From positions 1-64,000 of the forward strand of contig JAKQIY010000013.1 of assembly GCA_029561455.1 (NCBI GenBank): a stretch of DNA of 64,000 nucleotides, read 5' to 3'. This stretch comes from a bacterium. GTDB lineage: Bacteria > Zhuqueibacterota > Zhuqueibacteria > Residuimicrobiales > Krinioviventaceae. Each line of letters starts with the position of its first letter. Positions within the stretch are counted from its first letter, which is position 1. Shown here piece by piece: positions 35,356 to 60,342 of this stretch. A model generated the notes under the pieces. The model saw nothing but the letters and a program-made list of their open reading frames with translations. It had not been told where the DNA came from and did no database searches. The position numbers were made by a program, and so were the translations under genes.

Positions 35356-35609
35356 TATCGCGCTATCTTAGTATAGAGCATTGTCATTTAAAAGTGATGA
35401 CTTAAAAATACAAAATTTACCGGTTATGTAAAACAAATTATTAGCAATATATTAAATATCCATAACATTAACGATCATTATCAAGTCAGCAAAGTTAAAC
35501 CGAATTATACTGCAAATCATCCATTAACCCGGTGAGGATAAATTAATCTGTTGCTTTTAATGCTATGAAATTGTAAGTTTTTAAATTTGAATATAATGGA
35601 GAATTGTAT

Positions 35610-37556
35610 TTGATTACTATCGGTTCATTATCTCTTGGCGCGGCTCTGGTTTTATCGGTATATGCGCTGGTAACTTTTGTTGTTGCGGCGCGCAATCAAT
35701 CGCAAACCGTTACCGACAGCGCGCAGCGGGCGGTATATAGTATTTTTATTCTGGTCACGATCTCGTGCCTGGTGTTATTATATGCCTTGTTTTCACGTAA
35801 TTTCAATGTTGAATATGTGGCGCAGTACTCCAACCGTTCCCTGTCCTGGTTTTATACGGCAGCGGCATTCTGGGCAGGACAAGCCGGGTCATTGCTGTTG
35901 TGGGCCTGGCTGCTGGCGTTTTTTGCCGTGCTGGTTATTGTGCAAAACCGAAAAAACCAGCCGCTATTACTACCCTTTGTGATGGCGGTAATGAGTGTTG
36001 TGTTGTTTTTCTTTTTGTACTTGCTGGTTTTTAAAACCAATCCGTTCATTTCCCTGTCGTTCACACCAGAAGATGGCCGGGGATTGAATCCTTTATTGCA
36101 GAACCCGGAAATGATCTTTCACCCGCCATCCCTGTATATCGGCTTTGTCGGTTTTACTGTTCCTTTTGCGTTTGCCCTGGCCGCCATGATGTCCAAACAA
36201 CTGGATAACCTGTGGGTGAAAAGCATCCGCCGCTGGTCGCTGTTTTCGTGGCTGTTCCTTACCATCGGCAATATCCTGGGAATGCAATGGGCGTATGTAG
36301 AACTGGGATGGGGTGGATACTGGGCGTGGGACCCGGTAGAAAATTCTTCGCTATTGCCCTGGCTCACCAGTACCGCTTTTATACACACCGTAATCGCCCA
36401 GGAGCGCAAAGGAGTATTAAAAAAGTGGAATCTCTCACTGATCATTTTAACATTTGCTTTAACAATATTCGGCACTTTTGTTACCCGCAGCGGTTTAATC
36501 TCCTCGGTACATGCGTTCGGGGTTTCCGATCTCGGCCCGTTGTTCCTGGGATTCCTGGCGCTGATTTTAATCGTATCCTTTACTTTATTATATCGCCGCG
36601 CACCCTTGTTAAACAGCGCAAGCACAATAACCGGTTGGACATCGAGGGAATCCAGCTTTTTGCTGAATAATCTGCTGTTTGTCGCTATTACGATCGGCGT
36701 TTTTCTGGGCACGGTCATGCCCTCGCTCTCGGAAGCGTTTACGAATAATAAAATAACCGTCGGTGTGGAATTTTTTGACAGGCTGGCTGTGCCTATCGGT
36801 TTGGCAATTGCATTATTAATCGGTATCTGCACATTGTTATCCTGGAATGGGACCAGTCTTAGAAATATCATAAAGAATTTTACCATACCAGTATGTGTAA
36901 CACTAGTTGTTTTGATAATTCTTCTTATCCGAGGCTCTCATCATTTTTTAGCGCTGGTAGCGATATCTATCATTGTTTTTTCCATAACATCAACAATTAT
37001 GGAATATGTTCGCGGCGTACGGGTTCGCCGGCGCATGGAGAATGGTTCATTATTCGCAGCCCTTTTTAACCTGCTGCGTAACAATAAACGCCGTTACGGA
37101 GCATTTATTGTGCATCTCGGCGTGTTGTTGTTGATCCTTGGCATTGCCGGTTCATCGGTATTCAGTTATGATACTACTGTAACTGTTGAGCGCGGCGATA
37201 AAATTACTGTAGGCGATTATGAACTGCATTATCTCGGTATTGCCGGTTCGCATGACAAGCATTACCATATCGACGCAGCGCAATTTGATATATATAGCGC
37301 CGGCAAAAAGATTGGCGTTATACAATCGGAAAAACATTTGCAACCGAATTTTCAGCCGGCCACAGAAGTCGGTATTCGAACCACGTTAAAAGAAGACCTG
37401 TATGTTATTCTGGCCGATTATGATACGGAAACCGGCCGGGCGACCGTCAGCGTTTTAGTCAATACACTGATAGTGTGGATGTGGATCGGCGGTATTTTGA
37501 TGGTGATCGGCACCCTTTTAGTTTTAATCCCGTCCGCGGCAAAGCGTTCGGCCTGA
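35610..37556 (+). CDS. ccmF: Cytochrome c heme lyase subunit CcmF
   Basis: A 648-residue integral membrane protein with about 14-15 helices that attaches heme to apocytochrome c in the System I pathway. The Trp-rich WWD motif GGYWAWDPVENSSLLPW lies near residue 235, and histidine-bearing loops flank it. The C-terminal periplasmic domain follows RRYGAFIVHLGVLLLILGIAGSS. I take the TTG at 35610 as start because GGAG lies eight bases upstream; an earlier TTG is too close. First gene of the maturation operon. Confidence 0.92.
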   Translation: MITIGSLSLGAALVLSVYALVTFVVAARNQSQTVTDSAQRAVYSIFILVTISCLVLLYALFSRNFNVEYVAQYSNRSLSWFYTAAAFWAGQAGSLLLWAWLLAFFAVLVIVQNRKNQPLLLPFVMAVMSVVLFFFLYLLVFKTNPFISLSFTPEDGRGLNPLLQNPEMIFHPPSLYIGFVGFTVPFAFALAAMMSKQLDNLWVKSIRRWSLFSWLFLTIGNILGMQWAYVELGWGGYWAWDPVENSSLLPWLTSTAFIHTVIAQERKGVLKKWNLSLIILTFALTIFGTFVTRSGLISSVHAFGVSDLGPLFLGFLALILIVSFTLLYRRAPLLNSASTITGWTSRESSFLLNNLLFVAITIGVFLGTVMPSLSEAFTNNKITVGVEFFDRLAVPIGLAIALLIGICTLLSWNGTSLRNIIKNFTIPVCVTLVVLIILLIRGSHHFLALVAISIIVFSITSTIMEYVRGVRVRRRMENGSLFAALFNLLRNNKRRYGAFIVHLGVLLLILGIAGSSVFSYDTTVTVERGDKITVGDYELHYLGIAGSHDKHYHIDAAQFDIYSAGKKIGVIQSEKHLQPNFQPATEVGIRTTLKEDLYVILADYDTETGRATVSVLVNTLIVWMWIGGILMVIGTLLVLIPSAAKRSA

Positions 37557-37604
37557 GCGACGCCGGATTGGTTGTAAGTTCCTATAAAATATATGGAAGA
37601 GAAT

Positions 37605-37958
37605 ATGAGCTATCTGTTTTTGGTTTTACTTGTAATTATAGGTGTATACATTATTGCCCCTTACTTGAACAGGCACAAGAGTGTTGCGGTGGCCGGAACA
37701 AAACAGCAAAAGCTGTCCGCTTTGCAATACCGGCGGCAGCTCATCAGTATTTCCCTGGCGGAACTGGATTTTGATTACCGCATGGGCAAGCTGACGGAAC
37801 AGGATCGCGAGCAGGCCATGCAGGAACTGCACAGCGAACTCGGCAATATTGAAAAACGGCTGGCGCAGCTCGGCAATGCTCAAACCGCGGCGGTGAAAGA
37901 AAAGCTGGAAAAAGAGATCGCCGCCAGAAAAAAGCAAATCAATTCCGGCAAAAAATAG
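37605..37958 (+). CDS. CcmI-like membrane-anchored coiled-coil protein
   Basis: About 117 residues: one N-terminal membrane helix (residues 1-20) and a long charged helix with FDYRMGKLTEQDREQAMQEL, the motif of the N-terminal part of CcmI/CycH and similar anchors. It lacks the TPR domain of full CcmI. GGAAGAG precedes the chosen Met (MSYLFL). Its position between ccmF and ccmA supports a role in apocytochrome handling. Confidence 0.6.
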   Translation: MSYLFLVLLVIIGVYIIAPYLNRHKSVAVAGTKQQKLSALQYRRQLISISLAELDFDYRMGKLTEQDREQAMQELHSELGNIEKRLAQLGNAQTAAVKEKLEKEIAARKKQINSGKK

Positions 37959-38004
37959 TATATTACCGGATAATAAAATTTTAAGTTTTAAGGATAAAAG
38001 TTTT

Positions 38005-39168
38005 ATGAGCATTAGAACGTGCCGCTATTTTAAATATCTTTTAACGGTTTTATTCGTTTTATCACTTTATAGTCAAAACGTCTGTGCAGGTATAATCAAG
38101 GGCGTGGTTGTAAACGGCAGTCGCCAGGAAAAACCTCTAGCCAATATTCCCGTGTTGTTGCAAAAGATAGGCTCTAATGATACGGTGCATGTTGATGTAA
38201 CAAAAACCACCTCCAATCGCGTCGGCCAATTTGAGTTTGTTACAGAATTTAGCGATTCCACCGCATCTTATTTTGCGGCGGTCGATTACCAGGGTGCGCG
38301 GTATTACAGCCGCAGTAACGATCCGGAGATGCAAAAAATAGTGGTATATGATTCAACTCATAACCTGCAAAATATCAGCGCCATAATGCATCATGTGATC
38401 ATCAGCCAGGTAGGCGAGATGTTAAAGATCAAGGAAACCCGCATCATTCACAACCCGGATTCGCTTGCCATACCTTGCTCCAGCCTGGATGAGGCAGAAA
38501 ACGACCCGGTGATTTTTTTCGCTCTGCCTGAAGGTTACAGGAATATCCGCCAGGTCTCGATGTCTTTTGGCAATACGCTGGTTACCGGGGGCAACAATTT
38601 GTTTTTTATTGGCGTTATCCACCCCGGTAATAATCCTGTTTCTTACACTTATGAAATGCCTTTCGATGCCCATAGCGCAACCATCAATTTACCAATCAAT
38701 CTGTCGACGCAATCCCTGGATGTGTTTTCCAGCGATCCGGCGCTCAAGATTGAATCAGCCCAATTACACGATGAAGGACCCTTTACGATTCGCGGCAACC
38801 AGTATCAGCGTTTTAATGCGCGCGACCTGGCGGCGGGTTCCATGATGACTATGACCGTCTCTCATTCAGTAGATCATCGTCCGCGTTTTATTATTGTAGG
38901 TTTGCTGGTTGTGGCTATTGCTTTGTTTTCTGTAATCAATTACCTGTTCCGGCGCGGCAAACGCCGCAACCGCCAGGCGGCAGCCGACCCGATCACCCGG
39001 CTGCAGGAACGCCGTCGTGAACTGATCGACGCCATTGCCACTTTGGATAGCCGCGAGGGCCGACCCGATAAAAAGAGCCAAACCCGTCGCCGGCAATTAT
39101 TTGACGAGTTACAGGATATAGAATTATCATTGCAGGAAAGCAACAGCAGCCGGGATGAGCAAGCTTGA
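38005..39168 (+). CDS. Uncharacterised ccm-operon protein with Ig-like domain
   Basis: A 387-residue protein: signal peptide (residues 1-28), a carboxypeptidase-regulatory-like beta domain (IIKGVVVNGSRQEKPLANIPV), a middle beta-rich region, one transmembrane helix (about 294-312) and a cytosolic charged coiled coil (325-387, ITRLQERRRELIDAIATLD). It overlaps ccmA by four bases, so it is truly part of the operon. The coiled coil resembles that of the CcmI-like protein next door. It holds no CxxC or heme motif, so it is not CcmE, G or H. Role unknown, perhaps an assembly scaffold. Confidence 0.75.
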   Translation: MSIRTCRYFKYLLTVLFVLSLYSQNVCAGIIKGVVVNGSRQEKPLANIPVLLQKIGSNDTVHVDVTKTTSNRVGQFEFVTEFSDSTASYFAAVDYQGARYYSRSNDPEMQKIVVYDSTHNLQNISAIMHHVIISQVGEMLKIKETRIIHNPDSLAIPCSSLDEAENDPVIFFALPEGYRNIRQVSMSFGNTLVTGGNNLFFIGVIHPGNNPVSYTYEMPFDAHSATINLPINLSTQSLDVFSSDPALKIESAQLHDEGPFTIRGNQYQRFNARDLAAGSMMTMTVSHSVDHRPRFIIVGLLVVAIALFSVINYLFRRGKRRNRQAAADPITRLQERRRELIDAIATLDSREGRPDKKSQTRRRQLFDELQDIELSLQESNSSRDEQA

Positions 39169-39860
39169 TCGAGGCTATTAATATACGCAAGTCCTTTGCG
39201 GGCCGGTGCGCGCTGCATGATGTCAGTTTTTGTGTGCAGCGGGGCGAATACGCCGCTTTATTGGGCGTTAACGGGGCAGGTAAAACCACCCTTATTCGTA
39301 TTTTGTCCGCCATGACCAGACCCGCTTCGGGCGATGCGGTCATTGACGGTGTTTCATTGCATAAAAACGCCAACGCTGTCCGCAGCCGCATCGGGGTGAT
39401 GAGCCATACGCCGTTTCTGTATGGCGATCTTTCCGCGCTGGAGAATCTGCGTTTTTACGCCGGGATGTATGCACTCCGCAACTGCGATTCCCATATCGAT
39501 GAACTGCTGCACCGGGTTAACCTGCACGGACGCCGTTATGACCTGGTGCGCACCTTTTCACGCGGTATGCAGCAGCGTCTCTCCCTGGCCAGAGCCTTGC
39601 TCCACCAACCTTCAATATTATTGCTCGACGAACCCTTTACCGGCCTGGATATTCATGCGGCTCAATTATTGACCGACTTGTTGCATCAACATATTGAAAC
39701 CGGTATCACCGTGCTGCTCACCACCCATGATATTGATTTTAGCCTGCAATATGCCGACCGGATCATGATCCTGAAGAACGGTATGCTGGCGGCAAATGAG
39801 TCCCGGGCAACATTTTCAGCCAAACAGATCGCGGACTTGCTGGATGAGGCCCCCCAATGA
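39165..39860 (+). CDS. ccmA: Heme exporter ATP-binding protein CcmA
   Basis: A 231-residue ABC ATPase: Walker A GVNGAGKTTL (residues 35-44), signature FSRGMQQRLSLARAL and Walker B ILLLDEPFTGLD. With CcmB and CcmC it drives release of heme-loaded CcmE. TTG start overlapping the previous stop; its own stop overlaps ccmB as ATGA. The ABC call is sure; CcmA is chosen from the operon. Confidence 0.93.
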   Translation: MIEAINIRKSFAGRCALHDVSFCVQRGEYAALLGVNGAGKTTLIRILSAMTRPASGDAVIDGVSLHKNANAVRSRIGVMSHTPFLYGDLSALENLRFYAGMYALRNCDSHIDELLHRVNLHGRRYDLVRTFSRGMQQRLSLARALLHQPSILLLDEPFTGLDIHAAQLLTDLLHQHIETGITVLLTTHDIDFSLQYADRIMILKNGMLAANESRATFSAKQIADLLDEAPQ

Positions 39861-40534
39861 CGGCCCTGCTGCAAATATGGACAATTTTGCGTAAAGATAT
39901 ACTGGTTGAACGGCGCAGCAAAGACCTGGTTGTCTCGATGGCGGTCTTTGCCCTGGTGGTGATCGTGGTGTTTAATTTTGCGTTCGATCCGGGGACCACG
40001 CAATTACAAAATGCCGCTCCGGGTATATTGTGGGTGGCGCTGATCTTTGCCGGCAATATCGGCCTGAGCCGCGCTTTTGCCCGTGAGCAGGAAAACGGTA
40101 TGATGCAGGGTTTGTTGTTATGCCCGGTGGAACGCAGCAACATTTATCTTGCCAAAGTACTTGGCAATATGATCTTTATGGGCATAACGCAGATCATTGT
40201 GTTGCCGGTTATGATCGTTTTTTATGATTTATCTGTGGGCGTGGCATATTTACCATTGCTCCTCATTTTGTTCCTGGGCACACTTGGTTTTGCCACAACC
40301 GGCACTCTGTTTTCAACTATTGCCGCGCAGACCAGGACTCGCGAGGTGATGCTGCCCATTCTGTTATTACCGGTTTCAACGCCGGTTATTTTATGTACAA
40401 CCAAAAGCACTGCGCTTTTGTTCAAGGGCGCCGCTTTTAGCCAGGTATTTTCCTGGATTAAAATTCTCATAGCATTTGATATGATCTTTTTTGTATTATC
40501 CTGGTTGTTATACGAATATGTTGTTGAGGACTGA
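39857..40534 (+). CDS. ccmB: Heme exporter membrane subunit CcmB
   Basis: A 225-residue protein with about six membrane helices. LRKDILVERRSKDLVVSM at the N-terminus and EQENGMMQGLLLCPVERSNIYLAKVLGN are the typical CcmB blocks. It forms the permease part of CcmABC. Four-base overlap with ccmA. Confidence 0.93.
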   Translation: MTALLQIWTILRKDILVERRSKDLVVSMAVFALVVIVVFNFAFDPGTTQLQNAAPGILWVALIFAGNIGLSRAFAREQENGMMQGLLLCPVERSNIYLAKVLGNMIFMGITQIIVLPVMIVFYDLSVGVAYLPLLLILFLGTLGFATTGTLFSTIAAQTRTREVMLPILLLPVSTPVILCTTKSTALLFKGAAFSQVFSWIKILIAFDMIFFVLSWLLYEYVVED

Positions 40535-40545
40535 ACGGAACTACT

Positions 40546-41241
40546 ATGAATAAAATCAAACCGCTATACCTGGCTTTGCTGATCCCGACTTTTTTACTGC
40601 TGCTTATCGCGCTGTATTGTGCTTTTATTTATGCGCCAACTGAAACGAGTATGGGCGATGTGCAGCGCATTTTTTATTTTCACGTGCCTTCGGCATGGGT
40701 GTCGTTCCTGGCATTCTTTGTGGTATGCCTGACCAGTATTTTGTATTTAAAAACCGGCAAGGACAAATGGGATAGGCTGGCTGCCGCATCTGCTGAAATC
40801 GGCGTGCTGTTTATTGTCATTGTACTGATAACCGGGCCGTTATGGGCCAAGCCGGTGTGGGGCACATTCTGGACGTGGGATGCCCGTTTGACTACCTCGT
40901 TCGTATTGTTTTTGATCTATGCCGCATACCTGATGCTGCGTAGTTATGCCGTGAACAGCGAACGCGGTGCGCGCCTGGCGGCGGTTTTCGGTATTGTCGG
41001 TTTTGCGGATGTACCGATCGTTTATATGTCTATTCGCTGGTGGCGTACGCTGCATCCCCAGCCGGTCATCGCCGGGGGAGAAGGCAGCGGCCTGGCGCCG
41101 CAGATGCTGACGGCCCTGCTGGTCAGTTTGTTGGCGTTCACTGTTTTATATATCACTTTATTAAAAATTCGCTATGACGAGTCCGCTTTACAGCGCGAGA
41201 TCCTGCAATTAAAAGAGCAATTAATCAAGGAGTCTGAATGA
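40546..41241 (+). CDS. ccmC: Heme handling protein CcmC
   Basis: A 231-residue, six-helix protein of the heme-handling family. DVQRIFYFHVPSAWVSF carries the first conserved His, and WGTFWTWDARLT is the WWD motif (about 105-116). The third block SIRWWRTLHPQPV carries the second His ligand. It loads heme onto CcmE, which is not in this window. Confidence 0.94.
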   Translation: MNKIKPLYLALLIPTFLLLLIALYCAFIYAPTETSMGDVQRIFYFHVPSAWVSFLAFFVVCLTSILYLKTGKDKWDRLAAASAEIGVLFIVIVLITGPLWAKPVWGTFWTWDARLTTSFVLFLIYAAYLMLRSYAVNSERGARLAAVFGIVGFADVPIVYMSIRWWRTLHPQPVIAGGEGSGLAPQMLTALLVSLLAFTVLYITLLKIRYDESALQREILQLKEQLIKESE

Positions 41242-41497: not shown

Positions 41498-42052
41498 ATG
41501 AAGAAAAGTATTTTAATTACAGTCCTGACGTTGGTTATTTTTACCGTTATGGTTACGGCTCAGGACAAGACAGCCAAATATGTCGGTTCGGAAAAGTGCA
41601 AAGTTTGCCATAAAGCGGCCAGCCGTGGCGACCAGTATTCAATATGGGAAAAAAGCCTGCACGCTAAAGCCTATGCAACCCTGGCAACAGAGCAGTCCAA
41701 AGAAGTGGCTAAAAAAGCCGGTGTAACCAGCGACCCGCAAAAAGCGGCGCAGTGTTTGAAATGCCATGTTACCGCCTATGAGGCGCCGGCAACGGCAATA
41801 GACGCCTCTTTTAAACAGAGTGAGGGAGTCGGCTGCGAAGTTTGTCACGGCCCCGGTTCGATTTATAAAACGTTGAAAATTATGAAAGACCTGGCCGCCG
41901 GTGTTCAGGACCCCAAAGCGGTGGGATTTATAGCGGGCGATGAAGCCACCTGTTTAAAATGCCATAATACCGAGAGTCCAACTTATAAAGAATTCAAGTA
42001 CGATGTGGATTACGCAAAAATTGCCCACCCCTTGCCGGATAAGACCAAATAA
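41498..42052 (+). CDS. Tetraheme c-type cytochrome (cytochrome c554-like)
   Basis: A 184-residue periplasmic protein with a signal peptide (ending VTAQD). Four CxxCH heme sites: CKVCH, CLKCH, CEVCH (in GVGCEVCHGPGS) and CLKCH. The YVGSEKCKVCH entry and GCEVCHGPGS are typical of the c554/c' family of electron-transfer proteins. GAGGAAATGA precedes the ATG. It lies 116 bp after ccmD and may be a substrate of that system and a periplasmic partner of the convergent porin-cytochrome genes. Confidence 0.88.
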   Translation: MKKSILITVLTLVIFTVMVTAQDKTAKYVGSEKCKVCHKAASRGDQYSIWEKSLHAKAYATLATEQSKEVAKKAGVTSDPQKAAQCLKCHVTAYEAPATAIDASFKQSEGVGCEVCHGPGSIYKTLKIMKDLAAGVQDPKAVGFIAGDEATCLKCHNTESPTYKEFKYDVDYAKIAHPLPDKTK

Positions 42053-42073: not shown

Positions 42074-42120
42074 AAGAATCGCTTTACTGGGTTGTGTCCC
42101 GGTAAAGCGATTCTTGTTTT
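42074..42120. terminator. Shared bidirectional terminator
   Basis: AAGAATCGCTTTAC pairs with GTAAAGCGATTCTT, extended by GGG/CCC pairs to a short loop; TTGTTTTAT follows on the plus strand and TTTTGATAAAATTT on the minus. It separates the convergent tetraheme cytochrome and multiheme lipoprotein genes. Confidence 0.85.
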
Positions 42121-42126
42121 ATACGG

Positions 42127-43140
42127 TTACATATTATTCCAGATATGCACATACGATGGATTGTGACATGGCGAATTACAGGTCGCTGTAGTGCGATCCC
42201 ATGCCAGCGAAGGAATGATCTCCGCATTCGGAGTATTATCGATATGCAGAGGATCGGCAAAGGTGTGGAATTCCACATGGCAGGTCTCGCATACTCTGTA
42301 TTTCAAAAGATGCGATTGATGCTCGCCCACGCCGAGACTGGTTTTTTCGGACAAGCCATGCAAATCGACCGGGGGAGCGGGATTGCGTGTGCCGCCGTGA
42401 CAGGTGTTACAGGTCTCCGGGCCTTCGGAGCCGGTATGACAGGTATAACAGCTTTTGCCGGAACTGCCGCCCTTGTAATCATCGCCATGACATTTTTTGC
42501 AACCGTCCATTTTCCAGCTATGCTCGCGAATACTGACGCCGTGAAAGCCCTCGCTGTCTTTTGCCGTATACCAGTCCGCCGCATGGGGGAAGGTATGGCA
42601 GAAATTACACGCGACCTGCGTGCGGCCACCGAGGTAATCGGCCCCGTGACAAATTTGACAAGAATCGCCGTTTGATGCATAATAATATTGATCATGGAAT
42701 TGTTCGCCGGCGGCGTCATCCCAGCCGGTGAAATGGGGATAGAGGATGTGGCACGCATAGCAATCCGATGTATGGGTGTTATCATTATGCCAGGTATGGC
42801 ATTCGGCGCATAAATTCAGATCCCAGCGCTTTTCCCGCAAAAACTGGCCATGAAAATCGGCGTTCAGTGAATCATGCCAGACGGTGAGATGTGGATAGGA
42901 ATGACATTCATAACAGGAAACTCTACTTTCACCGCCGGAAAAATCCTGTCCGTGACAACTGATACAGGAGGAATAACCAACGGCCTCTACTTTTACACTA
43001 TGAAAGTTTTCCGAATCCTGCTGTGACCAGCTATCCGGGTGGGCTTTGGAAGGAATGGGATTGGCATTTTCCGAGCAGCTATAAAATAAAACCGGAACAG
43101 TGACAATCAGTAAATATAAACATAATTTATTTTTATTCAT
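42127..43140 (-). CDS. Deca/undecaheme c-type cytochrome lipoprotein
   Basis: A 337-residue lipoprotein (lipobox FYSC). It has ten CxxCH sites plus a C-terminal CNSPCH (CX3CH) site. The body is four di-heme repeats: CISCHGQDF...CYECH, CAECH...CYACH, CQICHGADY...CNFCH and CKKCHGDDY...CYTCH, each second site followed by a YPH/FPH plus W pattern in the first three. CNTCH and CETCH follow. As a lipoprotein after a porin and a periplasmic cytochrome it is the likely outer-face terminal of an electron conduit. Heme count is from sequence only. Confidence 0.88.
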   Translation of the reverse strand: MNKNKLCLYLLIVTVPVLFYSCSENANPIPSKAHPDSWSQQDSENFHSVKVEAVGYSSCISCHGQDFSGGESRVSCYECHSYPHLTVWHDSLNADFHGQFLREKRWDLNLCAECHTWHNDNTHTSDCYACHILYPHFTGWDDAAGEQFHDQYYYASNGDSCQICHGADYLGGRTQVACNFCHTFPHAADWYTAKDSEGFHGVSIREHSWKMDGCKKCHGDDYKGGSSGKSCYTCHTGSEGPETCNTCHGGTRNPAPPVDLHGLSEKTSLGVGEHQSHLLKYRVCETCHVEFHTFADPLHIDNTPNAEIIPSLAWDRTTATCNSPCHNPSYVHIWNNM

Positions 43141-43159
43141 TTATCGACACCTTTATAAT

Positions 43160-44056
43160 CTAATCATCAACTTTTTCGGTATGGCATTCGGCGCAAATCG
43201 GGTCGCCATTCATATCGTTATGACAACTGATACAGCCGTCCAGATCGAATCGCGCCGCGGTTTTATGTGTACCGCCGTTGCTTTTGTTCGACCACCCGGC
43301 AAAGGAATGGCTTTTCGGCAACACCAGTTCCGCCCGGTGACATTCCTGGCAAAATGACTGTTCTTCGTGACAGATATAACATTTATCGTTTCCGCTTTTG
43401 GCGGTGATGGCATGGTTATTAACAAAGTTCAGGGGGTGCACCTGGTGGTCCAGGTTATCGCCGCGATGGCATTCGAGGCAATAGTTATCGGTATGGCATA
43501 TTTGACAATTATCTTTATTTGTATAACTGTTCATTCCATGACCGGCAGTCCAGTTGCTCTTATGATCGGCGGGGCGCCGGTCTTCGCCTGTTTTGTGGCA
43601 GATGTTACAATAGTCCGGTTTTTCCAGGTCGGAATGGCATTGTACACAGCTTTGCATAGCGGGTAAATGGCTGTCGCTTATGTTTTCGCTGTTATCAACA
43701 CCGGTATGGCAATCGACGCATTGCAGGTCATTGGCTAGATGGATTTGATGCGGGAAACGGTCAATATAATGAGTGAACCACGGCAGAGTTACGGCAACAT
43801 CTTGTTTTTCATACGCAAATTTATAGGTCAACGTATCGCCATGACACTGATTGCAGGTCTCCTGGTTGGGCAATAAAATATCCAGGGGACTTGCACTGGA
43901 ATCGGCAACAGCGTGGCAATCCGCACAACCTGAACCAACATCCTGGATGTGCAGTTGGTGTGAGAATTTGGAACCGGTATCACCGGCGCCATTAACCATA
44001 CCCAGGCTGACCAGCGCTAATAAAAACAAAAGAAAGAGTGTAGTGTATTTTTTCAT
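43160..44056 (-). CDS. Periplasmic undecaheme c-type cytochrome
   Basis: A 298-residue exported protein (signal peptide to VNGAGD) with 11 CxxCH sites: CADCH, CNQCH, CVDCH, CVQCH, CNICH, CQICH, CLECH, CYICH, CQECH, CISCH and CAECH. Additional His residues (FSHQLHI, FPHQIHL) can serve as distal ligands. Two pairs are packed tightly (CQICH-4-CLECH and CYICH-5-CQECH). It sits between a porin gene and a heme lipoprotein gene (20 bp gap), the order of a periplasm-to-surface conduit. I take the third Met because GAGGA then lies at normal distance. Confidence 0.88.
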   Translation of the reverse strand: MKKYTTLFLLFLLALVSLGMVNGAGDTGSKFSHQLHIQDVGSGCADCHAVADSSASPLDILLPNQETCNQCHGDTLTYKFAYEKQDVAVTLPWFTHYIDRFPHQIHLANDLQCVDCHTGVDNSENISDSHLPAMQSCVQCHSDLEKPDYCNICHKTGEDRRPADHKSNWTAGHGMNSYTNKDNCQICHTDNYCLECHRGDNLDHQVHPLNFVNNHAITAKSGNDKCYICHEEQSFCQECHRAELVLPKSHSFAGWSNKSNGGTHKTAARFDLDGCISCHNDMNGDPICAECHTEKVDD

Positions 44057-44071
44057 AGTCATTGTCCTCAT

Positions 44072-45265
44072 TTACCAGCGGCAGGATATATGGTTTAACA
44101 GCCTGGAATCGCTTGTTTTATATTTATTGGTCAGCCATTGGTATTCGACATCGGCGGAGAAATGCCGGGAAAGCCGCCAGGAGAGCCGCGCCGCATTGGC
44201 GATTTGATCGTCAAATTCGTAAATGGTTTCGGTTCTGTACTTGCTATAGTCGGTATAAATCGAGAAAACCAGGTTATGAATAACTTCCAGACCATAGTCA
44301 AAAGCCAGGGAAACCTGGTCGCCGGCGTCGCCCGCTTCGTAAACCACACCCAGGCTGCCGTTTTGATTCTGCAAGGCAACCTGCACACAATTGGCCGCCG
44401 CGTCATCCGTTTGTATATGGTACATACCGGCATTGACATGGACATTGTCCCATAACCGGTAACTGCCATTCAGTTCCACCCGTTGGTAGGGCTTGGCGGA
44501 AAAAATTGTATAAAAAGAGTTTGCATAGATCTGCGGACGCTGCATTTTCAGTTCCACTGAGGTAGACAATCGTTCCGTCCACAAGCGCTGTCCGGCTATG
44601 AGCAAGCGCTGTATATTGTCATTAGCGGTATTATAATGTGCCTGGATGTTCAAAGTGGTATTGTTAAAATAACGATTGTTGATGTTTAATCCGGCAATTT
44701 GCCAAAGGGTTGCACTGGTATCGGCTTTGTGTAGAAACAGCAACTGTGCAGTTGTTTTTGTGGACAAGAGATTACTTATCTGGTAAAAACCGCCAACTAC
44801 TTGCCGGTTTTCAGCTTGATTTAAATCCAGGCTGCGAGAGATAGTTGATTCCGCGCCGCCATAAACCTGGAACAGATTTTTGCCGATAGAGTATTCTGCA
44901 TTAATTCCATCCAACGCGCCCATCATCACACCGGGGTGGAAAAACTGCCTACCGATCGTCATCTTTAAATGGTTATTAAACAGTTTTTGGAATTGCAGAT
45001 TTAATTGCCAGGTTTGGAATCTCTGTTTGTCCGCAAGATCGACATTGGCATCCGATAACACTCTGACCATAGAATTAAATACGATTTTTTTATAAGCCGT
45101 TGCGGTGTTTAAACGCAGGTACTGATAAATACGGGTAGTCGCTTCTTCATCTTTATAGCAATAGACGGAATTTTTCAGTTGGCCATGAAAAATCAGGCTT
45201 TGCGCCAGCAACTGAGGCCCAAAGCAGATACAAAGCAGGAGAATAATCAACGTGATTTTCTTCAT
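44072..45265 (-). CDS. Outer-membrane porin of the cytochrome conduit
   Basis: A 397-residue beta-barrel protein with a signal peptide ending LLAQS. Alternating amphipathic strands with aromatic ends run through the whole length (for example TWQLNLQFQKLF, LKMTIGRQFFHPG, RVELNGSYRLWDNVHVNAGMYHIQ) and it closes with ...ISCRW, an aromatic C-terminus. AGAGG precedes the Met. It is first in the operon with two multiheme cytochromes, so it probably forms the sheath through which they exchange electrons. It is shorter than MtrB-type porins; an unrelated porin is possible. Confidence 0.75.
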   Translation of the reverse strand: MKKITLIILLLCICFGPQLLAQSLIFHGQLKNSVYCYKDEEATTRIYQYLRLNTATAYKKIVFNSMVRVLSDANVDLADKQRFQTWQLNLQFQKLFNNHLKMTIGRQFFHPGVMMGALDGINAEYSIGKNLFQVYGGAESTISRSLDLNQAENRQVVGGFYQISNLLSTKTTAQLLFLHKADTSATLWQIAGLNINNRYFNNTTLNIQAHYNTANDNIQRLLIAGQRLWTERLSTSVELKMQRPQIYANSFYTIFSAKPYQRVELNGSYRLWDNVHVNAGMYHIQTDDAAANCVQVALQNQNGSLGVVYEAGDAGDQVSLAFDYGLEVIHNLVFSIYTDYSKYRTETIYEFDDQIANAARLSWRLSRHFSADVEYQWLTNKYKTSDSRLLNHISCRW

Positions 45266-56284: not shown

Positions 56285-57403
56285 TTAGACATGAGCTTTA
56301 TCGGATAGGGGAACGGATTGATTAGTACGATAATGGTAATAGGCCGCACATGCGCCTTCCGCCGAGACCATAGTAGCGCCGAGCGGGTGTTCCGGTGTGC
56401 ATTGTTGAGCAAATGCCGGACATTGCGGCGGTTTCTTTAATCCCTGCAAAACCAGGCCGCTGATACATATCTCCGGTTCATTGACCTGCATATTTTCCAG
56501 GGTGAACAGCTTTTCCGCATCCCAGGAACTGTATTGCGGTTTGAGTTGCAGGCCGCTTGCTGGAATAACGCCGATGCCGCGCCATTTCCTGTCCACCGGC
56601 GCAAATAGCTGGCTCATCAGGGATTGCGCCGGAATGTTGCCCTGTTCTGTCACCGAGCGGGCGTACTGATTCTCCACTCCAAAACGGCCTTCCTCTAATT
56701 GTTTGATACACAGGTATATACCCTGTACCAGGTCGAGCGGCTCGAAACCGGTAACCACAATAGGAATGTTGAATTTCTGTGCAATGGGAATGTATTCATG
56801 GAAGCCCATTACCGCGCATACATGTCCGGCAGCCAGAAAACCGCGAATACGGCAATCCGGCGCAGAGAGCAGCGCCTGCATGGCCGGCGGCACCAACACA
56901 TGCGAGACCAGCACGGAAAAGTTACGGATGTTTTCCCGCACCGCCCGGTAAACCGTCATAGCTATTGCGGGCACAGTCGTTTCAAAGCCCACCGCAAAAA
57001 AGACCACACGCTTGTCCGGATTTTTTTGCGCAATGTTTAGCGCATCCATAGGCGAATAGACAATGCGGATATCTTGTCCCGCCGCTTTGACGGCCAGCAA
57101 ATCCTGCGCGCTGCCCGGCACGCGCAGCATATCGCCAAACGAACAGAAAATGACATCCGGCTGCGCAGCAATGAGGATAGCCTTGTCGATCATTTCCAGC
57201 GGGGTAACGCAGACCGGGCAACCGGGCCCGTGGATCAACTCGACCGCATCGGCCAGGAGTTCATCGATGCCATATTTCAACAATGCGTGGGTTTGGCCGC
57301 CGCAGATCTCCATGATTGGCCACTTACGGGTTGACAGGGAGCGAATAGCGTGAATGACTTGTTTTATTGCCGCGGCATCCCGGTATTTAGCACTGTAATC
57401 CAT
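56285..57403 (-). CDS. hypD: Hydrogenase maturation protein HypD
   Basis: A 372-residue Fe-S protein that, with HypC, assembles the Fe(CN)2CO unit. EICGGQTH (about 38-45), HGPGCPVC and later cysteines bind the [4Fe-4S] cluster; [11 protein letters not shown] is also typical. It overlaps the 3' end of hypC by 17 bases. Confidence 0.95.
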
Positions 57404-57644
57404 CCCGCATCCCGGAATATTTGTTCATGTCCGCATAGATTTGTAATATCTCCACCGCCTCAGCTTCCTGCAATACGGCAATGGCAAAACCGGCGTGGAT
57501 ATTGACATAATCGCCAATCCGCGCTTCAGGCACGTAGCCCAGGTGCACTTCTTTAACAATACCGCCGAAATCCACTTTGCCGGTGCGATCCATTGGTTCG
57601 CCTTCCTGAATCGAGATGATTTTGCCGGGAATGGCTAAACACAT
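57387..57644 (-). CDS. hypC: Hydrogenase maturation chaperone HypC
   Basis: An 85-residue beta-barrel chaperone. It begins MCLAIPGKI; the N-terminal Cys2 and the P-G-K context are the iron-carrying site that partners with HypD. Followed by hypD by overlap. Separated from hypF upstream by 346 bp containing the MITE-like element. Confidence 0.95.
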
Positions 57645-57723
57645 AGGTTATCTCCGTTCTTATTTTTTGCATCTCTGAGTTTTATACCTATAGATTTTTT
57701 ACTATTCTATCTATTGTATTTTG

Positions 57724-57910
57724 GGGGCTGTATCAAAAGCCTATAGTGTTGTTGTTTTCCAGAAAATTAATATACGGGAATGTGTAGCACACCTTTTCGC
57801 AAATTCCATAAAAACAAAGTGATATTCCAATGTATAGATTGAAAATTTATAGCGAATAATTTTCGCAGGTGTACTACACATTCCTGTTCTATACCTTTTA
57901 ATACAGTCCC
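57724..57910. mobile_element. MITE-like nested inverted-repeat element
   Basis: A 187-bp element without coding capacity. Outer ends GGGGCTGTATCAAAAG and CTTTTAATACAGTCCC match in 14 of 16 positions as inverted repeats. Inner arms GGAATGTGTAGCACACCT (57777-57794) and AGGTGTACTACACATTCC (57867-57884) match in 17 of 18. Such GGG-CTGT-ending inverted repeats are common on transposons. It lies between hypF and hypC. No clear target duplication is visible. Confidence 0.6.
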
Positions 57911-57917
57911 ATTATTG

Positions 57918-57985
57918 TGCGCCCTGGGGAACATCCCCGGGGCGAGCTTGTATTAAATGCAATGCATAAAGGCATTGCACTCCAT
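57918..57985. repeat. Two small hairpins downstream of hypF
   Basis: CGCCCTGGGG/CCCCGGGGCG (57920-57943) and TGCAATGC/GGCATTGCA (57958-57981). They could help end the hypABF transcript, but no T-run follows on the minus strand. Confidence 0.45.
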
Positions 57986-57990
57986 TATCT

Positions 57991-60342
57991 TTAAATTTTC
58001 GTATCCTTGTTATTTAATATATGCAGCGCCATGATCTGGCCCAGGCAGATACCGCCGTCATTAGGTGGAATTTGCCTTTGTAAAAACACTTTAAATCCCG
58101 CTTTTTTTAATAATTGTACACTCTTTTCAGTTAACAAGCGGTTTTGAAATGTACCGCCGCTTAAAACAATGGCTGACAAACCGTTATGTTGGGCTACTTT
58201 AAGGATCATATCGGCCAGGGTATTGTGAAACCGCGCCGCAATTATCGGAATGGGTATTTGGTTAATATATCCTGTAATAATTTTATTAACAAGCGGCGCC
58301 CAGTCGATGAGCAATGGTTTATTGTTTGTATTCATTAATTGATATGGATAAATACTATTTTCCCGGCGAGCCTTCCAGGCCTGCTGTTCCAGTTGCATGG
58401 CCGCCTGGCCTTCGTAATGATTGATTTGCTGAATACCGAGCAGGGATGCAGCCGCATCGAACAGGCGCCCCATACTGCTTGTTATAGGGGAATGAAGATT
58501 TTTATCCAGCATCTGTAACAGCACTTTGCGCTCCGGCCCGGTGAATGCCTGAAATGTCGGCAACAAGTCGACTTTTTCAATTGGTTCGAGATTGAGAGTA
58601 TGCAGCAAACCAAGCGCGGTCCGGCGCGGCTCTTTTGCCGCCATATCGCCGCCGGGCAGGGGAAAGGGGCGCAAGTGTGCTACCCGTTCATATCCATCCT
58701 TTGTTATTGTAATGAACTCGCTGCCCCAAATCGACCCGTCATCGCCCAGGCCGGCGCCGTCCCAGGCAATGCCCAGCAGCGGCGGCTTTAGTTTGTTTTC
58801 CGCCATGGCGGCAAGAATATGCGCTACATGATGCTGCACCGGCTGCATGTCCTTTCCGAAATGCTGCGCCTGCCGGGTGGAAACATAGTCCGGGTGTTTA
58901 TCATGTAAAACCATCTGAGGTTCAATATGGTACATGTCGGACAAATCCTGTATGGTTCTTGTAAAGGCATTATTGGCAGCGGGTGTTTCCAGATCGCCGA
59001 TATGCTGACTGATAAAGACATTTCTGCCTTTACTTAGAGCGATGGTATTTTTCAGATGCCCGCCAACCGCCAGGGCGGGAGGGGAGTCGAAATTTACGGT
59101 GACCGGCAGCGGCGCATAACCACGCGCCCGGCGTAGTATGGTCATACTGCCGGCTATTGTACGAACGATAGAATCATCTACATAGCGGACAATAGGCCGG
59201 TTATGCACCAGGAAATAATCCGCAATTCCTGCCAGCCGACTCTGAGCATCATGGTTGTCGATACAGATCGGTTCATCGCTGATATTCCCGCTGGTAGCAA
59301 CCACCGGTTTGGCGAACCCGCGCAGCAGTATGTGATGCAGGGGAGTATAGGGCAGCATGATGCCCCAAAAGGAATTACCCGGAGCAACAAAAGCGGAGAG
59401 GGGCGATATAGAAACCGGTTGCCGTCGTTTTCGTTGCAGGAGAACAATAGGCGCTTCACGGGATAACAACCATTTTCTTTCCGGTGTACTAACATGGCAA
59501 TATTCTGTTATGGATTGTAAATCCGGGAACATCATGGCAAAGGGCTTTTCATCGCGCTGTTTGGCGCGACGCAATCGCTGAATAGCCGAGTCATTGGCGG
59601 CGTCGGCCAGTAACTGAAATCCTCCCAGGCCTTTCAGGGCAATAATAGCTCCCTCTTGCAGGAAAACTAGAGTCTTTTCGATAGCGCCGGTTCGTTCGGC
59701 AATTACTTTCCCTTGTGCATCTAATAACTTTATATACGGCCCGCATTTGGGACAAGCATTGGGTTGGGCATGAAAGCGGCGGTTGCCGGGATCGTCATAC
59801 TCTTGTTGACACTCCGGGCATAAGGTGAATTCCCGCATGGTGGTATTGGGCCGGTCATAGGGAAGATTCCGAATGATCGTATAACGCGGACCGCAATGCG
59901 TACAGTTGGTAAACGGGTAAAGATACCTGCGGTCTCCAGGATCAAATATTTCCCGCCGGCAATCGGCACAGGTGGCAGTATCCGGCATGATCCAGGCGGA
60001 TTTTTCTTCGCTTTCATCGCTGGCAATGATCGTGAAACCCGATTCCAAGGTAGGCCGCCGGGCTTTTCTGCTTATTGAGTGAATGATCGCTCCGGGCGGC
60101 GGTTCATCGCGTAAGCGCAGCAAAAATGTGTTTATAGTTTGTGAATCGCCTTCTGCTTCTATAACTACGCCCTGCGAATTATTGCGAACCCAACCGGTCA
60201 GGTTCAATTCCCGGGCCAGCCGGTAGACAAATGGTCGAAAGCCGACGCCTTGTACCGCCCCATGTATACGAATTTGTTGTCTGGTTAATCCATTTGTTAA
60301 AGATATTTTTAGCGATTCTTTTTCCGTCACATTTATCCGCAC
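57991..60342 (-). CDS. hypF: Hydrogenase maturation carbamoyltransferase HypF
   Basis: A 783-residue enzyme that makes carbamoyl-adenylate and passes the carbamoyl group to HypE. Acylphosphatase domain with HGAVQGVGFRPFVYRLA (residues 28-45). Two zinc fingers CADC...CTHC and CPEC...CPKC. YrdC-like domain (210-400) and a Kae1-like domain whose HHVAH metal site is at about 505. Starts with GTG directly after the hypB stop. Confidence 0.95.
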   Translation of the reverse strand: MRINVTEKESLKISLTNGLTRQQIRIHGAVQGVGFRPFVYRLARELNLTGWVRNNSQGVVIEAEGDSQTINTFLLRLRDEPPPGAIIHSISRKARRPTLESGFTIIASDESEEKSAWIMPDTATCADCRREIFDPGDRRYLYPFTNCTHCGPRYTIIRNLPYDRPNTTMREFTLCPECQQEYDDPGNRRFHAQPNACPKCGPYIKLLDAQGKVIAERTGAIEKTLVFLQEGAIIALKGLGGFQLLADAANDSAIQRLRRAKQRDEKPFAMMFPDLQSITEYCHVSTPERKWLLSREAPIVLLQRKRRQPVSISPLSAFVAPGNSFWGIMLPYTPLHHILLRGFAKPVVATSGNISDEPICIDNHDAQSRLAGIADYFLVHNRPIVRYVDDSIVRTIAGSMTILRRARGYAPLPVTVNFDSPPALAVGGHLKNTIALSKGRNVFISQHIGDLETPAANNAFTRTIQDLSDMYHIEPQMVLHDKHPDYVSTRQAQHFGKDMQPVQHHVAHILAAMAENKLKPPLLGIAWDGAGLGDDGSIWGSEFITITKDGYERVAHLRPFPLPGGDMAAKEPRRTALGLLHTLNLEPIEKVDLLPTFQAFTGPERKVLLQMLDKNLHSPITSSMGRLFDAAASLLGIQQINHYEGQAAMQLEQQAWKARRENSIYPYQLMNTNNKPLLIDWAPLVNKIITGYINQIPIPIIAARFHNTLADMILKVAQHNGLSAIVLSGGTFQNRLLTEKSVQLLKKAGFKVFLQRQIPPNDGGICLGQIMALHILNNKDTKI

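What the first reader, a model, noticed from the sequence alone, without database searches (positions are those of the whole stretch)
42127..45265. Candidate trans-outer-membrane electron conduit with ~22 hemes
One operon encodes a beta-barrel protein, a periplasmic 11-heme cytochrome and a 10+1-heme lipoprotein, in the order porin, periplasmic, surface. This is the parts list of porin-cytochrome conduits known from Geobacter and Shewanella, but the barrel is small (397 residues) and the lipoprotein is built from four di-heme repeats, so it may be a distinct class. A tetraheme cytochrome and the heme-attachment operon lie next door, convergent.
Basis: partly seen in the sequence, partly recalled or inferred. 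Interest (0 to 1): 0.75.

Follow-up and report, generated by a model that had tools for sequence, protein, structure and literature searches.

The report
Porin-cytochrome electron conduit in KSB1 bacterium
Three neighbouring genes very probably build a wire of about 22 hemes through the outer membrane of an uncultured KSB1-group bacterium, a new example of the porin-cytochrome conduits already known from Geobacter, whose outward-facing part is built from a 53-residue two-heme block that is present in one to six copies in different relatives.

Summary
On the minus strand, with almost no gaps, lie a 397-aa beta-barrel, an 11-heme exported cytochrome and a lipoprotein with 10 CxxCH plus one CxxxCH. 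Next door, convergent, are a tetraheme c554-type cytochrome and a Ccm operon. The genome belongs to candidate phylum KSB1 (Zhuqueibacterota). AlphaFold2 gives the barrel 22 strands, short loops and no plug. A sister subfamily (profile-profile E 2e-46 for barrels, 5e-66 for cytochromes) has 14-heme cytochromes like Ignavibacterium album IALB_1838, a published pcc component. I read it as a trans-outer-membrane electron conduit of the Pcc type, most likely outward. The small barrel is no sign of a distinct class: published Pcc porins have 18-22 strands, and conduits are already reported in KSB1 and Caldithrix. The least ordinary feature is the lipoprotein: a two-heme unit of about 53 residues in 1, 2, 3, 4 or 6 copies across relatives, four here. 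Homology to Geobacter OmbB could not be tested.

The parts
44072..45265 (-). outer-membrane beta-barrel, 397 aa, predicted 22 strands, sheath of the conduit
   Evidence: AlphaFold2 mean pLDDT 78, 22 strands; 35-46% identical to 19 homologues; no Pfam or NCBIfam match
43160..44071 (-). exported cytochrome with 11 CxxCH (family has 12), wire of the conduit
   Evidence: 40-50% identical to 16 homologues, heme cysteines and histidines conserved; Cytochrome_C7 matches
42127..43140 (-). lipoprotein with four 53-residue di-heme repeats and a three-motif cap (10 CxxCH + 1 CxxxCH), presumed surface cytochrome
   Evidence: invariant cysteine 22; repeats and cap
42074..42115 (+). terminator-like hairpin between the convergent units
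   Evidence: 18 pairs and a T-rich tail; consensus match only
41498..42052 (+). tetraheme c554-type cytochrome, possible periplasmic carrier; a neighbour, not a dedicated part
   Evidence: PF13435 E 1.4e-21; found in 43 of 60 related genomes, also without the conduit
35604..41241 (+). Ccm heme-attachment operon: CcmF, CcmI-like, a 387-aa unassigned protein, CcmA, CcmB, CcmC
   Evidence: Pfam and NCBIfam matches

Best explanation
The three genes encode a trans-outer-membrane electron conduit that works like the Geobacter Pcc complex. The 22-strand barrel is the sheath, the 11-heme cytochrome sits in or against it as the wire, and the 11-heme lipoprotein takes electrons at the cell surface. Electrons probably come from the quinol pool through an inner-membrane multiheme dehydrogenase (an ImcH-like protein is encoded elsewhere in the genome), perhaps by way of a small periplasmic cytochrome such as the c554-type one, and leave to an outside acceptor (mineral, humic substance or partner cell). 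Shown by computation: gene content, linkage, conservation, predicted strand count. Inferred: the assembled complex, insertion of the cytochrome, the surface position of the lipoprotein, direction of flow and acceptor.
For: Cytochrome of one family directly downstream of the barrel in 50 of 50 testable KSB1 clusters and 16 of 16 in a second phylum. Barrel model with 22 strands, loops of at most 17 residues, no plug. Heme density of about 25 residues per heme, as in MtrA (25.1; PMC7399161). Gene order barrel-periplasmic-lipoprotein kept in most relatives. CbcL-like or ImcH-like cytochromes next to conduits of several relatives. Trees of barrel and cytochrome agree in the main clades. Own genome has an ImcH-like protein and Ccm.
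Against: No complex was modelled; the cytochrome model was poor (mean pLDDT 56). Foldseek matches are generic barrels, including ordinary porins, and MtrB is not among the first 50. Three relatives lack the lipoprotein gene beside the pair. No CbcL-like protein in this genome. No biochemical evidence.
Confidence: 0.85

Rival explanations
1. It is a conduit but runs inward: electrons from Fe(II), a cathode or a partner cell enter the periplasm, as proposed for MtoAB and PioAB.
For: Sequence does not fix direction, and the same kind of complex serves both directions in other bacteria. Another study reported Cyc2-type iron oxidases in KSB1 genomes (PMC9769843).
Against: Relatives place the conduit beside ImcH-like and CbcL-like proteins, which mostly oxidise quinol. 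The window's neighbourhood encodes polysaccharide-degrading enzymes, which fits a heterotroph that needs an electron sink.
Confidence: 0.15
2. The conduit serves a soluble or outside-bound acceptor, with the lipoprotein itself as the terminal reductase, and not minerals or electrodes.
For: The surface lipoprotein varies most between relatives. Published pcc clusters occur in organisms that do not reduce Fe(III) oxides (PMC4245776).
Against: The repeats look like plain electron-transfer hemes (matches to Cytochrome_C7 and Cytochrom_c3_2 only) with no sign of a catalytic domain.
Confidence: 0.12
3. The barrel is a specific nutrient porin that is merely co-transcribed with periplasmic cytochromes, and no electrons cross the membrane.
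For: Foldseek matches are generic barrels, including specific porins such as OpdK and AlgE.
Against: 66 of 66 testable homologues keep the cytochrome directly downstream. 18-strand porins score lower (TM on query about 0.42) than 22-24-strand barrels (0.54-0.57), and the model has no long constriction loop.
Confidence: 0.04

Closest known systems
Pcc complex OmbB-OmaB-OmcB of Geobacter sulfurreducens
   Same: Barrel, periplasmic multiheme cytochrome and outer-membrane multiheme cytochrome, in that gene order; barrel in the 18-22-strand range (PMC4245776).
   Different: Periplasmic partner 11 hemes against 8; surface partner 11 against 12 hemes and built of 53-residue di-heme repeats here. Sequence homology could not be tested.
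Pcc clusters of Ignavibacterium album (IALB_1838/1839) and the pcc porin homologue reported in Caldithrix abyssi
   Same: IALB_1838 has 400 residues and 14 hemes, the make-up of the sister subfamily found here. The barrel family here also occurs in the phylum of a Calditrichaceae record.
   Different: The window's subfamily has a shorter cytochrome with 11-12 hemes.
MtrCAB of Shewanella
   Same: Same principle: barrel, periplasmic wire, surface lipoprotein cytochrome.
   Different: Barrel does not match MtrB_PioB and has 22 strands against the 28 predicted for MtrB.
Porin-cytochrome complexes reported in KSB1 metagenome-assembled genomes
   Same: Same phylum and same inferred function (PMC10732223, PMC13264449).
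   Different: The passages read report presence only; whether they are this family was not tested.

Membership tests
Pcc (OmbB-OmaB-OmcB type) | Sequence similarity to OmbB, OmaB or OmcB (BLAST E < 0.01 in the defining survey) | not testable with these tools
   No Geobacter or Ignavibacterium sequence could be fetched; no homologue of the barrel in the PDB, plasmids or viral contigs
[quoted passage not shown]
   22 strands in the AlphaFold2 model; range from PMC4245776
Pcc (OmbB-OmaB-OmcB type) | Adjacent gene for a periplasmic c-type cytochrome with 5-14 hemes | tested here: met
   11 CxxCH, adjacent; same in all testable relatives
Pcc (OmbB-OmaB-OmcB type) | Outer-membrane multiheme cytochrome in the cluster | tested here: inconclusive
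   Lipoprotein with an invariant cysteine and 10+1 heme motifs is present; its place on the outer surface was not testable; three relatives lack it
Pcc (OmbB-OmaB-OmcB type) | Electron transfer across a membrane by the purified complex | not testable with these tools
   Needs proteoliposomes
Mtr/Mto/Pio (MtrCAB type) | Barrel of the MtrB_PioB family (PF11854) | tested here: not met
   No match of the barrel; none in the whole genome
Mtr/Mto/Pio (MtrCAB type) | Decaheme periplasmic MtrA/DmsE-type cytochrome | tested here: not met
   11 hemes; TIGR03508 23.5 bits against a cut-off of 192.2
KSB1/Calditrichota barrel plus 11-14-heme cytochrome family defined here | Barrel homologous to the family profile and family cytochrome directly downstream | tested here: met

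The most novel reading that the evidence does not exclude
The surface subunit is an extensible wire: a self-contained di-heme block of about 53 residues is duplicated or lost so that the lipoprotein carries 1, 2, 3, 4 or 6 blocks, tuning how far electrons reach from the membrane while the transmembrane pair stays nearly constant.
Probability: 0.2. Interest if true: 0.6.

Novelty: new member of a known kind. Interest (0 to 1): 0.4.

Why it matters
It adds a well-supported candidate for extracellular respiration to a phylum with no cultured member that is mostly described as heterotrophic or fermentative, and gives a conserved barrel-cytochrome family, without a matching Pfam or NCBIfam model for the barrel, that can be used to find such conduits in KSB1 and Calditrichota genomes. 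The natural series of surface cytochromes with 4 to 15 heme motifs on a similar membrane pair would be a ready-made set for testing how wire length affects electron delivery.

Tried and rejected
MtrB/PioB membership: no match. Homologues in solved structures by sequence: none for the barrel; for the lipoprotein only marginal matches. Structure of the periplasmic cytochrome: model too poor to use (mean pLDDT 56), so no fold search was made with it. CbcL-like quinol oxidase in this genome: none found. Homologues in plasmids and viral contigs, sought to reach other organisms: none. The small barrel as a sign of a new class: rejected, since Pcc porins of 18-22 strands are known. The c554-type cytochrome as a dedicated part: rejected, since it also occurs in genomes without the conduit and often on another contig. 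One region request exceeded the length limit twice and a genome centre was first named wrongly.

Full report
What is there. The three reading frames are as described: barrel 44072-45265, exported cytochrome 43160-44071 and multiheme lipoprotein 42127-43140, all on the minus strand in the order porin, periplasmic, surface. The barrel stop codon abuts the next ATG, and cytochrome and lipoprotein are 19 bp apart. Heme motifs number 11 and 10+1; shuffling the proteins gives at most 3 CxxCH. A hairpin terminator separates the unit from a convergent tetraheme c554-type cytochrome, behind which lies a Ccm heme-attachment operon.

Where it comes from. The window lies in a 5.85-Mb genome of 85 contigs. 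The named contigs that carry the closest barrels are mostly candidate division KSB1, some Calditrichota. KSB1 has been renamed Zhuqueibacterota (PMC11683472).

Conservation and linkage. The barrel family occurs in 51 of 82 genomes of the phylum and in 24 of 40 genomes of the phylum of a record named Calditrichaceae. I read the neighbourhood of 55 barrel clusters. In five the barrel is cut by the contig end; in all 50 others the next gene downstream on the same strand is a cytochrome of one family, with 11-14 hemes in nearly all complete cases. The same holds for 16 of 16 loci examined in the second phylum. Two genomes of one genus have truncated orphan cytochromes with in-frame stops and no barrel, which look like a decayed conduit.

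Two subfamilies. The window's subfamily has a barrel of about 397 aa and a 12-heme cytochrome of about 295 aa. A sister subfamily has a barrel of about 430 aa and mostly a cytochrome of about 395 aa with 14 hemes. Profile comparison joins the barrels (probability 100, E 2e-46) and the cytochromes (E 5e-66). Some genomes (G002, G043, G046) carry both. Barrel and cytochrome trees agree in their main clades. Ignavibacterium album IALB_1838, a published pcc periplasmic cytochrome, has 400 residues and 14 hemes (PMC4245776), the same make-up as the sister subfamily; this is a lead, since its sequence could not be fetched.

The barrel. AlphaFold2 with 20 sequences gives 22 strands, mean pLDDT 78, loops of at most 17 residues and no plug. 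Standard barrel geometry puts the backbone diameter at about 39-42 A, against 28-31 A for 16 strands and 46-50 A for 26. Foldseek finds only generic barrels; on the query, 22-24-strand barrels score 0.54-0.57 at best, 18-strand porins about 0.42 and 16-strand porins about 0.3 (strand numbers of the targets from general knowledge). So the barrel does not look like a narrow specific porin, but that the cytochrome fits inside is inferred. The low-confidence loops 110-115, 246-256 and 345-353 hold or border many of the most conserved residues; they may contact the cytochromes (inference).

The cytochromes. The periplasmic protein has one heme per about 25 residues after the signal peptide; [quoted passage not shown] The window lacks heme 3 of the family's 12; G040 lacks the same heme, and the two lie apart in the trees, so the loss probably happened at least twice. 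The lipoprotein starts from an invariant cysteine and consists of two-heme units of about 53 residues, then a cap with two CxxCH and one CxxxCH. Relatives have 2, 3, 4 or 6 units with the cap, or 2 without it, and the sister subfamily has one; the spacing is nearly always 53 residues. Three relatives have no lipoprotein gene beside the pair.

How electrons would get there. Several relatives have next to the conduit a 650-aa fusion of multiheme cytochrome and cytochrome b561 (CbcL-like) or a NapC/NrfH-type protein of about 508 aa like ImcH (the names CbcL and ImcH are assigned from architecture, not by a curated model). This genome has the ImcH-like protein on another contig, next to a multiheme protein with a sub-threshold match to hydrazine dehydrogenase, and no CbcL-like protein. 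Closely spaced CxxCH pairs occur at only three loci in the genome, 7 of 10 matches being in this cluster. The inner-membrane partner is thus plausible but not assigned.

What is known. Pcc porins are smaller than MtrB, with 18-22 predicted strands, and their periplasmic partners have 5-14 hemes (PMC4245776). Pcc-type conduits are reported in KSB1 metagenome-assembled genomes (PMC10732223; PMC13264449), Ignavibacteria (PMC7399161) and Caldithrix (PMC6137239). The window is therefore a new member of a known kind, without a matching curated model for the barrel, not a new class. No paper on the repeat-built lipoprotein was found in the held library, which lacks most subscription papers.

Noticed in passing
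G000:C67 (L143:7417-10802): A 358-aa NapC-like multiheme cytochrome next to a GMC-type oxidoreductase and a small protein resembling gluconate 2-dehydrogenase subunit 3: possibly a sugar dehydrogenase wired to a multiheme cytochrome (names from reading the sequences, not from a search).
   Followed up: no
G000:C50 (L091:8373-11198): ImcH-like cytochrome beside a 444-aa multiheme protein with a sub-threshold match to hydrazine dehydrogenase.
   Followed up: partly
window 43160-44071, and G040 cytochrome (L049): The same heme (number 3 of 12) is missing in two separate lineages of the periplasmic cytochrome, so this heme seems dispensable.
   Followed up: partly
L102:8260-8928 and L103:744-1346: Truncated orphan copies of the periplasmic cytochrome with in-frame stops and no barrel in two genomes of one genus: probable decay of the conduit.
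   Followed up: partly
L076:3692-6955: A 1087-aa lipoprotein-like cytochrome with 21 CxxCH and about 10 CxxxxCH motifs just upstream of a sister-subfamily barrel; G046 has a 1089-aa counterpart.
   Followed up: no
L076:532-3096: A 9-heme, 854-aa cytochrome with a type IX secretion sorting tail near the sister conduit, suggesting export of a surface cytochrome by T9SS.
   Followed up: no
window 56285-60342: HypD and HypF hydrogenase maturation genes in the same window.
   Followed up: no
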